Assembly (NCBI RefSeq): GCF_000217795.1
Contig: NC_015681.1
Span: 558,001 to 622,000 of the forward strand
Length of the DNA stretch: 64,000 nt
DNA from: Thermodesulfatator indicus DSM 15286
GTDB taxonomy: Bacteria > Desulfobacterota > Thermodesulfobacteria > Thermodesulfobacteriales > Thermodesulfatatoraceae
Reading direction: 5' to 3'
The notes beneath the pieces were generated by a model. It ran no database searches. It had not been told where the DNA came from and saw only the letters and a list, made by a program, of their open reading frames with translations. This document shows, in pieces, positions 37,879-61,538 of the stretch (its first letter is position 1; every line of letters starts with the position of its first letter). A program made the position numbers and the translations under genes.

Positions 37879-38199
37879 AGAGGAGCATTATAATTTTTAG
37901 TACGATTTTTATAAGAGGAATTTTATTAAAAATTTTTGATTATTTGACTAGACTTTGAGAATGACGCAAAATAGAGAGGCTTTTGCAAAGTCAGCAAACA
38001 TAGATTGAGATCGCCATGACGAGGCTCTCGCCCGGTGAGATTGCTTCGCTTCACTCGCAATGACTCTCTCCACTGCGAGGAGACCCGTTTAGGGAGATCC
38101 CTTCGCTGCGCTCAGGACAGGCGAGGCAGTCTCTAGGATATTACCAGCAGCCATCGGCTAACAGCCATCCACCTTTCAGTCACGGCGAGACCTTTCCCC

Positions 38200-38361
38200 T
38201 ATCACTGCAAAGAGCCAGCCCTATCCTGTCACTGCTAGGAGCCAGCCCTATCCTGTCACTGCTAGGAGCCAACCCTATCCTGTCACTGCTAGGAGCCAAC
38301 CCTATCCTGTCACTGCTAGGAGCCAGCCCTATCCTGTCACTGCTAGGAGCCAGCCCCTATG
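38200..38361. repeat. 27-bp tandem repeat (minisatellite), six units
   Basis: Six head-to-tail units with a period of exactly 27 bases (starts at 38200, 38227, 38254, 38281, 38308, 38335). Each unit reads tgtcactgct then aggagccagccctatcc, with single changes (one ag to aa); the first unit and the end of the last are degenerate. There are no spacers, so it is not a CRISPR array. Confidence 0.93.
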
Positions 38362-38394
38362 TCGTTACGGGGAGGAGGAGCCGCTCCCCCTTCT

Positions 38395-38481
38395 GTCACT
38401 GCGAGGAGCCGCAGGCGACGAAGCAGTCCCTTTCACCATCGGCCATCTACCATCAGCCAATTACCAATTTGTCACTGCGAG
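38395..38481. repeat. 87-bp repeat, plus-oriented copy of a perfect inverted pair
   Basis: Starts gtcactgcgaggagccgcag and ends with gtcactgcgag. Every base matches the reverse complement of 51953-52039. It encloses a ccatc-rich core. Confidence 0.93.
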
Positions 38482-38527
38482 CCCGTAGGGCGAAGCAGTC
38501 TCTTAAAAACATCTTCGGCACAAAATA

Positions 38528-38574: not shown

Positions 38575-39822
38575 TTAGAACTTGAACTTGAAACCAGAAC
38601 CAATGTAGTAAACATCATCAGCATTCTTAGCAAGAGCGTCACCTACTACGATGTAGGCAGCTTCCACGAAGAAAGTGGTGTTCTGGTTATAGGCGTATTT
38701 GTAGGTACCGTTAAGTTCAAGACCGAGATCTTTATCACCAGCAGCATTGTCTTTAGCGAGGTTGTGCCAGATAACAGCGCCTTTTAAAGAGCTCTTATCA
38801 TCAATTTTGTAAGCGCTGTCAAGCATAAGACCGAAATAACCATACTGGCCATAGCTAGCTCCATCAATGAAAGCACCGAGGTAGCCGTTGGCAAAAAGGA
38901 TACCAGGAGCCATATTCTTAGATTTCTCAGCATCCTCAAAGGTCTTATTTTTATCGACATTAGGATCATCATCACCACTGGAGTAGATAACGCTACCGGC
39001 AAGCTTGAGCTGCTCGTTTACCTGAAAACCAGCGGTGAAATCCATATACCAGGCGCTGCGGTCAACATTAGCATTCTCTTTACCACCAAGATAAATGATA
39101 TCCCAGGCGAGCTCTACCGGATCAACCATGGTGTTACCGGTAAAACCAAAGTAGTACTTGGTATTGTCAGAGCCATAAGGATCTTCGTAAGCAAAGAAGC
39201 CACCAAGGGTGGTGGTGTCATCTACTTTGTAGTCAAGCTTAATAAAGGCCAAGTGATCGTCGTCATTGGAGAAACCATTGGTATTTTTGAGCTCAGTTTC
39301 ATTATAGTCGCTATTATTCCAGACATAACCGAGCAACAAGCTGTAAGCATCGGTTTTGTAGTCGTAAGTGATACCAGCAGCATTGTCATCATAAACGGCA
39401 CCGTTGATGGAAACCGGCTGAAGCCCCATAGCCACGGCACCAGGAGCACCAAAAGGCTCAAGGCTGAACACTCCGTAAGCCAAGCGGGTTTCAACGTTCA
39501 CGCCGTCACCCTCAAAACCAAAACCTACACCTTTACCCACGGAACCAGAATCACCCCAGACAGCACCGCCGATTTCAGCGCCATAGACGAACTTGGCCAT
39601 ACCATCGTCACTGGTGACAGTCATAGTAGGACGAACCCTGGTGGCACCAAAAATGTCACCTTCTTTGTTGGCGTCAGAGTAATCGCCAGAGTCAATACCA
39701 GTGATGTTGTTACTGGCACCTACCAGGTTGAGCATGCTGCCGCTGAACTTGATGTCCACGGCATACGCCCCACTAGCCATTAACAAAAACGCCACCAAAA
39801 CCATCAAAAACTTCTTACCCAT
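38575..39822 (-). CDS. Outer-membrane porin-like beta-barrel protein
   Basis: A 415-residue exported protein. The signal peptide is residues 1-21 (MGKKFLMVLVAFLLMASGAYA), and the mature part begins VDIKFSGSMLNLVG. Alternating aromatic/polar beta strands run throughout and the chain ends in FKFKF, the terminal Phe being the sorting mark for outer-membrane barrels. It resembles porins of sulfate reducers and related thermophiles; the solute is unknown. It is likely abundant: it has its own promoter, strong ribosome-binding site (aggagg) and a strong terminator. Confidence 0.85.
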   Translation of the reverse strand: MGKKFLMVLVAFLLMASGAYAVDIKFSGSMLNLVGASNNITGIDSGDYSDANKEGDIFGATRVRPTMTVTSDDGMAKFVYGAEIGGAVWGDSGSVGKGVGFGFEGDGVNVETRLAYGVFSLEPFGAPGAVAMGLQPVSINGAVYDDNAAGITYDYKTDAYSLLLGYVWNNSDYNETELKNTNGFSNDDDHLAFIKLDYKVDDTTTLGGFFAYEDPYGSDNTKYYFGFTGNTMVDPVELAWDIIYLGGKENANVDRSAWYMDFTAGFQVNEQLKLAGSVIYSSGDDDPNVDKNKTFEDAEKSKNMAPGILFANGYLGAFIDGASYGQYGYFGLMLDSAYKIDDKSSLKGAVIWHNLAKDNAAGDKDLGLELNGTYKYAYNQNTTFFVEAAYIVVGDALAKNADDVYYIGSGFKFKF

Positions 39823-39919: not shown

Positions 39920-40063
39920 CCATATTTTGTTTAATTTTTGAGACAAATATTACCATCGCTTGGCTTAACACTCCACGACAATTATTGACATTTCTACGCT
40001 TTAACGCAAGCCCTAATCAGATCAATTTTACTGATTTATCTGTTAAGATTGTTTAATTAATTT

Positions 40064-40253
40064 GAGACTTTTGCAAAATATTTATTAGAGACTGCTTCGC
40101 CCATACGGGCTCGCAGTGACAGTGTGGTCGATAGCCGATGGTAAATGGCTGATGGCACAAGGAGCGGCGCCAGCAGCCGAAGCAATCCTTGTCCCGAGGC
40201 GCCGATGGCACCGTAGTGATCTATCCATGTTATTTGAATTTTGCAAAGGTCTC
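40064..40253. mobile_element. MITE-like element with 16-bp inverted ends and 5-bp target duplication
   Basis: A 190-base element. The left end is gagacttttgcaaaat (40064-40079) and the right end attttgcaaaggtctc (40238-40253): 15 of 16 positions pair as an inverted repeat. The bases AATTT stand on both sides (40059-40063 and 40254-40258), as expected for a 5-bp target-site duplication. The interior has no gene and carries gcgaagcaatc-type repeat modules. It needs a transposase in trans; none recognisable with these ends is in the window. Confidence 0.8.
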
Positions 40254-40312
40254 AATTTGATACAGCAACAAATTGTAGTAATGGAGTCATTAAACAGGCG
40301 ACAAAATACCTG

Positions 40313-40514
40313 GTCATTGCGAGCGGAGCGAAGCAATCTCTGTCCCGAGGAGACTTAGTCGCCGTGGTGATCTCTATTTTAGAGATCCCTTCGCTGCGCT
40401 CGGGACAGGGACGGCTTCGGCCTCTAACAAGGCCTCGCCGTGACAAAGAAGGGTTGCTTCGCCAGGGCCGATTATGCCGGCGTTGAGGCTTTGTTGTCTA
40501 AAAAACGCTCGGAT
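40313..40514. repeat. ~200-bp composite repeat, copy A
   Basis: Starts gtcattgcgagcggagcg and ends aaaaacgctcggatt. It matches 47511-47714 over nearly its whole length in the same orientation, with scattered changes and short indels. A diverged copy of its 3' half is at 44891-44984. The remaining 69 bases to the LD-carboxypeptidase stop show nothing recognisable. Confidence 0.9.
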
Positions 40515-40583
40515 TGAGATTAACCTATAAAATTGCCGCGAGGGGTACATCTCTCACAAGACCTCTAGCCGTGTAAACGCGGA

Positions 40584-41453
40584 TTAATAGATATCCTGGA
40601 GTAAATAGGCCTGGCCGTAGCGAGTGCAAAGATGGGTTCTTGCGCCAATGACAAGGGGATAATTTTTTATACCGTGGCCCACCGGAAGCCCTGCCAATAT
40701 GGGGCCATTAAAAACCTCCTTAAACAGAGGGATTATTTCCTGATAATTAACACCTTTGAACTCACCCAAAGCAAGACCAGAAATTTCTTCAAACACCCCG
40801 TAATTATAGAGCTGAGTGACAAGACGATCCAGGCGATAGAGGTCCTCGTTTACCTCTTCGAGGAAAAGAATTTTTCCCGAAAAATCAGGAGCCCAGCGGC
40901 TACCTAATAGACTTGCCACAGAGACCAGATTCCCGCCAATAAGTAGCCCCTGGGCCTCACCTTCACGCCATACTTCACCTATAAGAAACACTCTCTTTCG
41001 GCCAAAGAGAGTGTTTTTGAGGACTGCCAGAGTGCAAAGGCTTACTTCAAAGATAGAAGATATAACCGGCGCATGAAGTGTCAGCAGACCAAAACGGGAA
41101 AAGAAATAATTGAGCAGGATGCTCACATCACTAAAACCGATTATCCAGACAGGATGTCTGATTCTCTCTATAAGTTCGTCAAGTAAAGGCAAAAGGCGCA
41201 AGGAACCATATCCTCCGCGGCTGGCCCAAAGAAAGGTATAGGGCTTTTCAAGGAGAGAGACAAGATGTAAGGCCCTTTCTTCGTCTCTTCCCGCAAGGTA
41301 ACGGCAATTTTTAAAACACTCAGGGTCAACGTCTATTTCAAGACCCCAGGTTTTCAAAAAGTTTACTCCATTGGCTATTTTTTTAGGGTCTGGAACGCCT
41401 GCTGGCGAAAAAACTGCGCCTCTAGCTCCGATAAACAAAACAGGTTTATTCAT
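40584..41453 (-). CDS. LD-carboxypeptidase (S66 family, LdcA/MccF-like)
   Basis: A 289-residue serine peptidase that trims tetrapeptides during murein recycling, or, in MccF relatives, inactivates a peptide-nucleotide. The nucleophile is S108 in IIGFSDVS; FLWASRGGYGSLRLLP precedes it. The Glu of the triad lies in FLEEVNEDLYRLDRL and the His in LPVGHGIKNYPL. The start overlaps the coaX end by eight bases; it is the last gene of the M48-prmA-coaX run. Confidence 0.88.
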   Translation of the reverse strand: MNKPVLFIGARGAVFSPAGVPDPKKIANGVNFLKTWGLEIDVDPECFKNCRYLAGRDEERALHLVSLLEKPYTFLWASRGGYGSLRLLPLLDELIERIRHPVWIIGFSDVSILLNYFFSRFGLLTLHAPVISSIFEVSLCTLAVLKNTLFGRKRVFLIGEVWREGEAQGLLIGGNLVSVASLLGSRWAPDFSGKILFLEEVNEDLYRLDRLVTQLYNYGVFEEISGLALGEFKGVNYQEIIPLFKEVFNGPILAGLPVGHGIKNYPLVIGARTHLCTRYGQAYLLQDIY

Positions 41454-47322: not shown

Positions 47323-47510
47323 CTCACTATTCACTATCAGCCATCTACCATCAGCCAATCACCATACAGTCACTGCGAGGAGGCATTCTTCCCCCCTGTC
47401 ACTGTATGGTTTTAATTTAACCCTGTCATTGCGAGGCCTCGCTAGAGGCCGAAGCAATCCCAGGGACTGCTTCGTGGCCCTACGGGCCTCCTCGCAGTGA
47501 CAGAGGTGAT

Positions 47511-47714
47511 GTCACTGCGAGCGGAGCGAAGCAATCCTTGTCGCGAGGAGACTTAAGTCGCCGTGGCAATCTCTATTTTAGAGATCCCTTCGCTGCGCTC
47601 GGGACAGGGACGGCTTCGGCCTCTAACAAGGCCTCGCCGTGACAAAGAAGGGTTGCTTTACCAGGGCCGATTATGTCGCGTTGACGCCTTGTTGTCTAAA
47701 AAACGTTCGGATTA
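47511..47714. repeat. ~200-bp composite repeat, copy B
   Basis: Direct, near-identical copy of 40313-40514. Differences include cttgtcgcg for ctgtcccg near the start and tatgtcgcgttgacg for tatgccggcgttgag near the end. Confidence 0.9.
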
Positions 47715-47784: not shown

Positions 47785-47982
47785 GTGCTGAAAATACCAG
47801 AAAATGAGACCTTTGCAAAATTCAGAAAAAACAGAGATTGAGATAGCTACGGCGAGATTGCTTCGCCACTTCGTGGCTCGCAATGACCAAAAAGGAGACA
47901 GGGCTCGCAATGACAAGATAGAGGGTCGTAGTTTGCAATGACTGCCATGTTGTCACTGCGAGGAGCCAGCCCCTATGTCGCT

Positions 47983-48122
47983 GAGCCAGCTCCTATGTCG
48001 TTACGGGGAGGAGCCAGTCCCTACGTCGTTACGGAGAGAAGCCAGTCCCTATGTCGTTACGGGGAGGAGCCAGCCCCTATATCGTTACGGGGAGGAGCCG
48101 CTCCCCCTTCTGTCACTGCGAG
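47983..48122. repeat. 28-bp tandem repeat (minisatellite)
   Basis: Units starting near gagccag at 47983, 48011, 48039, 48067 and 48095, each 28 bases apart, reading gagccagtccctatgtcg then ttacggggag with point changes. It shares the aggagccag/ccctat core with the 27-bp array at 38200, so the two arrays look like separate expansions of one module. Confidence 0.88.
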
Positions 48123-48184
48123 GAGCCGTAGGCGACGAAGCAGTCTCAGGCCTTAACCTTAAAATTACGGCAAGGAGGCCCTAA

Positions 48185-60689: not shown

Positions 60690-61538
60690 ATGCCAAGAAT
60701 CCCTCGTTTGCTAACCAACCATCCCAAAGCCGCTTATCACGTCATTTCTCGTACGGCTTTACCCGGCCACAACGTGCTCGGCCCTGAAGAAAAAGAACAC
60801 CTACTCAATCTCATTAGCTGGCTCTCTCAGGTATACTTCGTAGAAGTCTATGGCTTTGCTATCATGGGTAACCACTTCCATCTCCTCTGCCGCATGCTTC
60901 CCGAAGACAAATTCTCTGACGAGGAAGTAGCTCGCCGCATAAAGCTCTATTACCGGGGCAAGCGCAAAGTCTTTATCTACAAAGAACTTCTTGCCAAATG
61001 GCGCGAGCGCTTAGCTAGCCTCTCCCGCTATGTCCAGGACATCAAGCAAAGATTCTCCCGCTGGTATAACAAACGCGTTGACCGCAAAGGCTACTTCTGG
61101 GCTGACAGGTTTAAGTCCGTAATCATTGAAACTGGAGAGGCCTTGCTTAATTGCCTGGCCTACATTGAACTGAACCCGGTGCGGGCAGGGATTGTAGAAA
61201 AGCCGGAAGACTACCGCTGGTGCTCGCTAGGATACCGAGCAAGATTAGGGACAGGCAAAAATTTTCTCTCGCTTGACCTAGGCCTTCCTTCTTATGCCGA
61301 CAAATCCGAACAAGAGAAACTCAGACTCTACCGAGAGTTCGTCTATGGTAAAGGCGGCATTGGTGAGCCTGAAAAATTAACTAAAACCAAAGAATTCGTA
61401 TATCGGACACGTTATTTTTCTGAAAGTCTCGTAATTGGTTCAAAGCGTTTCCTAGAGGAAACCGGCAAAGAAATAAAAAAGTTCTTTTCTAAAAAACAGC
61501 AAAAGCTTATTCCTGATAGAGGAATACTCATATTGTGA
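60690..61538 (+). CDS. REP-associated tyrosine transposase (RAYT, IS200-like Y1 family)
   Basis: A 282-residue single-strand transposase. The N-terminus (NHPKAAYHVISRT) and HUH motif GNHFHLL (H62, H64) with the catalytic Tyr candidate Y158 (LAYIELNPVRAG) match the Y1 transposase family, RAYT branch. RAYTs are usually single-copy and act on short REP repeats in trans. Here no inverted terminal ends or tnpB are present, but copies of the GGGACAGGC repeat stand directly upstream and inside the gene (61248-61265, encoding GTGKNF). Strong ribosome-binding site caggaggtt. The C-terminal 80 residues are basic and unlike canonical IS200. Confidence 0.9.
   Translation: MPRIPRLLTNHPKAAYHVISRTALPGHNVLGPEEKEHLLNLISWLSQVYFVEVYGFAIMGNHFHLLCRMLPEDKFSDEEVARRIKLYYRGKRKVFIYKELLAKWRERLASLSRYVQDIKQRFSRWYNKRVDRKGYFWADRFKSVIIETGEALLNCLAYIELNPVRAGIVEKPEDYRWCSLGYRARLGTGKNFLSLDLGLPSYADKSEQEKLRLYREFVYGKGGIGEPEKLTKTKEFVYRTRYFSESLVIGSKRFLEETGKEIKKFFSKKQQKLIPDRGILIL
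61248..61265 (+). repeat. Short dispersed repeat inside the RAYT gene (copy 10)
   Basis: Reads gggacaggcaaaaatttt in frame, giving the residues GTGKNF within RARLGTGKNFLSL. The position is between the Y1 domain and the basic tail. Confidence 0.65.

What the first reader, a model, noticed from the sequence alone, without database searches (positions are those of the whole stretch)
40064..40253. 190-bp MITE-like element with matching ends and target duplication
The ends gagacttttgcaaaat and attttgcaaaggtctc pair over 15 of 16 bases, and AATTT stands at both borders. Related left ends occur alone at 37976 and 47806, so this is a family. The interior consists of the same repeat modules that fill the other islands, which suggests a transposon-like route for spreading these modules.
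Basis: seen in the sequence. Interest (0 to 1): 0.68.

Follow-up and report, generated by a model that had tools for sequence, protein, structure and literature searches.

The report
IS5-mobilised MITE carrying REP hairpins
The 190-base element is a real, transposase-less mobile element, one of about 30 two-ended copies that an IS5-type transposase in the same genome can probably move; it is a known kind of element, unusual mainly because its body is built from the genome's abundant hairpin repeats.

Summary
The 190-bp element (40064-40253; 15/16-bp inverted ends; AATTT duplication) belongs to a family in a 2.32-Mb Thermodesulfatator-like genome: 41 exact 16-bp ends against 0 for the reversed pattern, and 29 two-ended copies, 10 with perfect 5-7 bp target duplications against about 1 expected. 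Five ~1.2-kb IS5-family elements with an intact DDE transposase have the same ends. One copy (2199620-2200018) has a clean empty site in a congener; the alignment is best when exactly 5 bp are dropped. At the window copy's place the congener lacks the ends but is too diverged for an exact empty site. The interior is three CGTC-type REP-like hairpins. Two-ended copies and solo ends together hold only about 75 of 360 module cores (a lower bound), and sister genomes carry the same ends around other interiors. So the MITE carries modules but is not shown to be their main route of spread. Nine IS110 copies use the same modules as targets; all seven fully readable sites are GTCATTG|CGAG. The same ends are published for ISNme1 and, in shorter form, for BrickBuilt: a new member of a known kind.

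The parts
40064..40253 (+). complete MITE, 190 bp
40059..40063 (.). left copy of target-site duplication AATTT
40064..40079 (+). left terminal inverted repeat GAGACTTTTGCAAAAT
40088..40120 (-). REP-like hairpin module M1 (+ strand GAGACTGCTTCGCCCATACGGGCTCGCAGTGAC)
   Evidence: alignment of copies; hairpin in fold; module statistics
40163..40187 (+). REP-like hairpin module M2, 5' side degenerate in this copy (AGCGGCGCCAGCAGCCGAAGCAATC)
   Evidence: full form GTCATTGCGAGGCTGCGCCAGCAGCCGAAGCAATC in other copies
40190..40221 (+). hairpin module M3 (TGTCCCGAGGCGCCGATGGCACCGTAGTGATC)
40238..40253 (-). right terminal inverted repeat
40254..40258 (.). right copy of target-site duplication AATTT
37976..38515 (-). 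decayed, expanded MITE: right-arm end at 37976, tandem 27-bp array inside, left arm at about 38436-38515 without terminal repeat
47806..48150 (-). truncated MITE: right-arm end at 47806 followed by modules, other end not found

Best explanation
[quoted passage not shown] The DDE transposase binds both ends, excises or copies the element, and inserts it into AT-rich intergenic DNA with a 5-6 bp staggered cut, leaving a 5-6 bp duplication. The body carries no gene. It consists of three CGTC-type REP-like hairpins captured between the ends; they travel passively and are sites where further modules and an IS110 element have accumulated. Shown: ends, family, duplications, an intact transposase with the same ends, and an empty site for one copy. 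Inferred: binding and cutting by that transposase, and the direction of capture.
For: 15/16 inverted ends and AATTT duplication. 41 exact ends vs 0 in control. 29 two-ended copies; perfect 5-7 bp duplications in 10 vs about 1 expected. The core copies align from end to end, median identity 83%, best pairs 96%. IS copies of about 1.2 kb with the same ends, 313-aa IS5-family DDE_Tnp_1 transposase, 6-bp duplications TCTTCC and AAAAAA, two copies 100% identical over 1223 bp. Ends occur in 7 of 21 searched genomes (own, congeners G002, G003, G004, G007, same-family G008, one end in G010), all of which hold a relative of the transposase. Sister genomes have two-ended elements with the same ends and 5-6 bp duplications. 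Clean empty site of copy 2199620-2200018 in congener G007, best alignment when exactly 5 bp of duplicated target are dropped.
Against: MITE and IS share only the terminal ~16 bp, and the right end of the IS differs there (GAGACCTTTGAAAAAA), so the link rests on the ends. 19 of 29 two-ended copies have no perfect 5-7 bp duplication. The exact empty site of the window copy could not be shown: in G007 the orthologous intergenic region lacks the ends but holds its own module and is too diverged. No movement has been observed.
Confidence: 0.92

Rival explanations
1. The element is chiefly a vehicle that spread the REP-like modules through the genome: most module islands are decayed MITEs that lost their ends.
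For: In the window two further islands (37976-38515 and 47806-48150) are bounded by a MITE end; counting whole islands, 7 of 17 window modules are MITE-linked. Two-ended copies can be expanded to about 400 bp.
Against: Genome-wide only 75 of 360 module cores are in two-ended copies or near a solo end. Congener G007 has a comparable module load (327 hits of GAAGCARTC vs 58 control) with differently built elements. Modules show their own conserved REP-like anatomy with covarying stems.
Confidence: 0.15
2. The modules are the mobile unit (REPs moved by RAYT-type tyrosine transposases), and the inverted ends are incidental.
For: The genome has about 16 RAYT-like Y1_Tnp genes, one in the window at 60690-61538.
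Against: None of the eight loci fetched around these genes (six genes) has a module in about 1 kb of flank. The target duplications lie exactly at the inverted ends, not at the module edges. The ends occur with module-free interiors in sister genomes.
Confidence: 0.04
3. A chance inverted pair inside a generally repetitive island, not a transposable element.
For: Inverted 16-mers with at most 1 mismatch arise 0-4 times per Markov control of the window.
Against: 41 exact ends vs 0 control, transposase with the same ends, target duplications and an empty site.
Confidence: 0.01
4. A cis-acting regulatory or terminator element kept for its hairpin between the carboxypeptidase gene and the neighbouring gene.
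For: Folds better than shuffles as RNA (z -3.2); lies between ORFs 38575-39822(-) and 40584-41453(-).
Against: No intrinsic terminator found and promoter matches at chance level. The congener has no such element at this place. Folding is expected of any element with inverted ends and palindromic modules.
Confidence: 0.05

Closest known systems
ISNme1 (IS5 family) and its MITE, ATR, of Neisseria meningitidis (as given in PMC4596501)
   Same: Listed ISNme1 ends GAGACCTTTGCAAAA / TTTTGCAAAGGTCTC are identical to the ends of this family; ATR is a MITE of about 0.2 kb with about 10-20 copies, said to be frequently associated with REP2 repeats.
   Different: ATR interior is AT-rich; here the interior is three GC-rich REP-like hairpins. 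The transposases were not compared with ISNme1.
BrickBuilt MITE of Porphyromonas gingivalis (PMC4596501)
   Same: Ends GAGACCTTTGCA / TGCAAAGGTCTC in the best copy; parent elements in the IS5 family (ISPg1, ISPg9); interior made of repeated units; duplications of variable length.
   Different: BrickBuilt carries a 23-nt tandem minisatellite; here the units are palindromic REP-like modules that also occur outside the element.
CGTC-tagged REP repeats (PMC3733652)
   Same: The interior modules carry a (C/T/A)GTC tag, a stem that begins with A and T or C and is complementary at the other end, and a short C-rich tail; like CGTC repeats they do not flank RAYT genes.
   Different: Inner stem of variable length with an internal loop; Thermodesulfobacteria are not among the five phyla listed there.
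131-bp MITE with the same ends in congener G004 and same-family genome G008
   Same: Same 15-16 bp ends, 5-6 bp duplications.
   Different: Interior is a GGATCCGTTCCC...GGGAACGGATCC palindrome, no REP-like module.

Membership tests
MITE | short (50-1000 bp), no coding capacity | tested here: met
   core copies 165-190 bp, no ORF of 100 aa or more inside 40064-40253
MITE | terminal inverted repeats | tested here: met
   15 of 16 bp
MITE | target-site duplication | tested here: met
   AATTT here; 5-7 bp in 10 of 29 copies vs about 1 expected
MITE | multiple dispersed copies | tested here: met
   29 two-ended copies plus solo ends
MITE | autonomous partner with the same ends | tested here: met
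   five intact IS copies in the same genome
MITE | empty site without the element | tested here: met
   copy 2199620-2200018 absent in G007; for the window copy itself inconclusive
IS5-family mobilised element (ISNme1-like ends) | IS5-family DDE transposase acting on these ends | tested here: inconclusive
   transposase is IS5 family (NF033581, 246 bits vs cut-off 140) and lies between the same ends; its action cannot be tested by sequence
IS5-family mobilised element (ISNme1-like ends) | ends GAGACCTTTGCAAAA | tested here: met
   Table 2 of PMC4596501
CGTC-type REP (interior modules) | GTC-type tag at one end, stem starting with A, short tail | tested here: met
   90 of 96 modules have GTC at the tag; second stem pair C-G 61, T-A 34, mismatch 1
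CGTC-type REP (interior modules) | 8-9 bp stem with 4-5 nt loop | tested here: not met
   stem has an internal loop and an inner stem of variable length
REP moved by RAYT | modules flank the RAYT gene | tested here: not met
   no module in eight fetched loci around RAYT-like genes

The most novel reading that the evidence does not exclude
One MITE family couples three systems: an IS5 transposase that disperses CGTC-type REP hairpins, REPs with no known enzyme of their own that gain mobility this way, and an IS110 element whose predicted bridge RNA is aimed at the REP core, so that each MITE insertion creates a new IS110 landing site and the mobile elements feed each other.
Probability: 0.3. 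Interest if true: 0.6.

Novelty: new member of a known kind. Interest (0 to 1): 0.4.

Why it matters
CGTC-type REPs have no known dedicated transposase, and PMC3733652 asks whether other transposases could move them. Here is a concrete route: REP-like hairpin modules captured between IS5 ends, with target duplications and an empty site, differently assembled in two species of one genus. The same modules are the landing sites of an IS110 element with a bridge-RNA-like leader, so the genome offers a natural test of how IS elements and REPs shape each other in a thermophile.

Tried and rejected
Exact empty site of the window copy in G007: region found, but too diverged and with its own module. 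RAYT as the mover of the modules: genes present but without modules at their flanks. Rfam: nothing but a tRNA in the window. Terminator or promoter role: chance level. Literature search for the module core: no relevant paper; no held paper joins Thermodesulfatator and MITE.

Full report
Setting. The window is G000:C1:558001-622000 of a single 2,322,224-bp contig. The closest named relatives of its transposase are mostly Thermodesulfobacteriales and Thermodesulfatator records.

Observation. The ends at 40064-40079 and 40238-40253 pair over 15 of 16 bases and AATTT lies at both borders. A single pair like this is not remarkable in 64 kb: Markov controls gave 0-4 pairs. The family carries the case. 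GAGACYTTTGCAAAAT occurs 41 times in the genome and its reversed control 0 times. BLAST with the element gives 55 places; the best second copy, 1154428-1154609, is full length at 90% identity.

Anatomy. I paired ends in 248 kb of fetched stretches. Of 29 two-ended non-IS copies, 10 have perfect 5-7 bp duplications (TATGA, TAAAAC, TTAAAA, AATTT, ATTTA, TTTTT, TAAATT, TATTA, TTTTA, TAAAAAA), against about 1 expected when left and right flanks are swapped between copies. The core form is 165-190 bp: end, AT-rich spacer, three hairpin modules, AT-rich spacer, end. Core copies share a median 83% identity and the best pairs 96%, so most insertions are not recent.

The two 'solo left ends' in the window are right-arm type. 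At 37976 the opposite arm survives at about 38436-38515 without its terminal repeat, with a 27-bp tandem array in between. At 47806 the far end was not found.

Autonomous partner. The DDE_Tnp_1 search found seven places. Five are complete elements of about 1.16-1.24 kb with the same left end, a right end reading GAGACCTTTGAAAAAA, and an intact 313-aa transposase. It belongs to the IS5 family (NF033581, 246 bits, cut-off 140), with DUF772 and DDE_Tnp_1 domains. Two copies are identical over 1223 bp, and two of the five have 6-bp duplications, TCTTCC and AAAAAA. So a likely active mobiliser is present. MITE and IS share the terminal repeats only.

Relatives. Among 21 genomes the ends occur in seven: the own genome, four congeners (G002, G003, G004, G007), one same-family genome (G008), and a single end in G010. 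All of these also hold a relative of the transposase. G004 and G008 carry a 131-bp MITE with the same ends and a different palindromic interior; G007 carries 219-354 bp elements with REP-like modules assembled differently; several have 5-6 bp duplications. The ends are thus the constant part and the interior changes, which argues for capture of modules between the ends, in more than one lineage.

Empty site. A 20-kb stretch with several copies was searched in four congeners. For copy 2199620-2200018, G007 is continuous across the insertion point; the alignment of the joined flanks scores best when exactly 5 bp, one target copy, are dropped. For the window copy the orthologous region in G007 lacks both ends but is too diverged for an exact join and has its own module.

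Modules. CGAAGCARTC occurs 360 times (reversed control 12). Of 96 modules read in full, 90 carry GTC at the tag, and the second pair of the outer stem covaries (C-G 61, T-A 34, one mismatch), while the inner stem varies in length. This fits CGTC-type REPs (PMC3733652) except for the internal loop and variable inner stem, so I call them CGTC-type REP-like, not members. In the fetched stretches 50 module cores lie in two-ended copies and 25 within 200 bp inside a solo end, i.e. 75 of 360. This is a lower bound, since decayed copies without ends are missed; in the window, counting whole islands, it is 7 of 17. Spread of modules by the MITE is therefore real but partial. RAYT-like genes are numerous (about 16; one in the window), but the eight loci fetched around six of them have no modules.

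Nested IS110. Two MITE copies (757182-758708, 894392-895767) contain an IS110-family element inside a module. The genome has nine copies of it. In all seven copies where both junctions could be read the module is split at GTCATTG|CGAG; the two others (L199, L200) gave one junction each and agree with it. A leader upstream of the ORF folds far better than shuffles (z -7.6) into two internal loops, one of which holds GAGUCAUGG opposite GAUCGCAAGA, resembling guides for GTCATTG and TTGCGA. This looks like an IS110 bridge RNA; REPs as targets of IS110 elements are known (PMC11208160; PMC1525189). Guide pairing was judged by eye, without a control.

Known kinds. Table 2 of PMC4596501 gives ISNme1 ends identical to this family's, names ISNme1 as proposed parent of the ATR MITE, and describes BrickBuilt, a MITE with the shorter form of these ends and a repeated interior. 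The element is thus a new member of a known kind, with a REP-like interior as its distinctive trait.

Noticed in passing
L060 and L014 (G000:C1:757182-758708, 894392-895767), L197-L206: IS110-family element, nine copies, inserted in REP-like modules at GTCATTG|CGAG, with a bridge-RNA-like leader (z -7.6) whose internal loop resembles the module core; two copies sit inside MITEs.
   Followed up: partly
window 47395-47425: Short remnant TATGGTTTTAATTTAACCCT resembling the IS110 left end between two modules; the same remnant stands beside complete IS110 copies (L060, L201).
   Followed up: partly
window 60690-61538: RAYT-like tyrosine transposase gene, one of about 16 in the genome; preceded by short GGGACAGGCGAAAAA repeats, not by the modules.
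   Followed up: partly
window 40313-40515 and 47511-47713: A second repeated unit of about 203 bp, 93% identical, made of modules plus a longer tail ending GTTGTCTAAAAAACG; partial copies elsewhere in the genome. Mode of spread unknown.
   Followed up: partly
L181 (G004) and L187 (G008): A 131-bp MITE is 100% identical between two genera of one family: recent transfer, recent activity or a binning error.
   Followed up: no
window 38198-38356 and 47983-48099: Tandem 27-28 bp arrays (CCTGTCACTGCTAGGAGCCAGCCCTAT and relatives) inside the two decayed MITEs.
   Followed up: no
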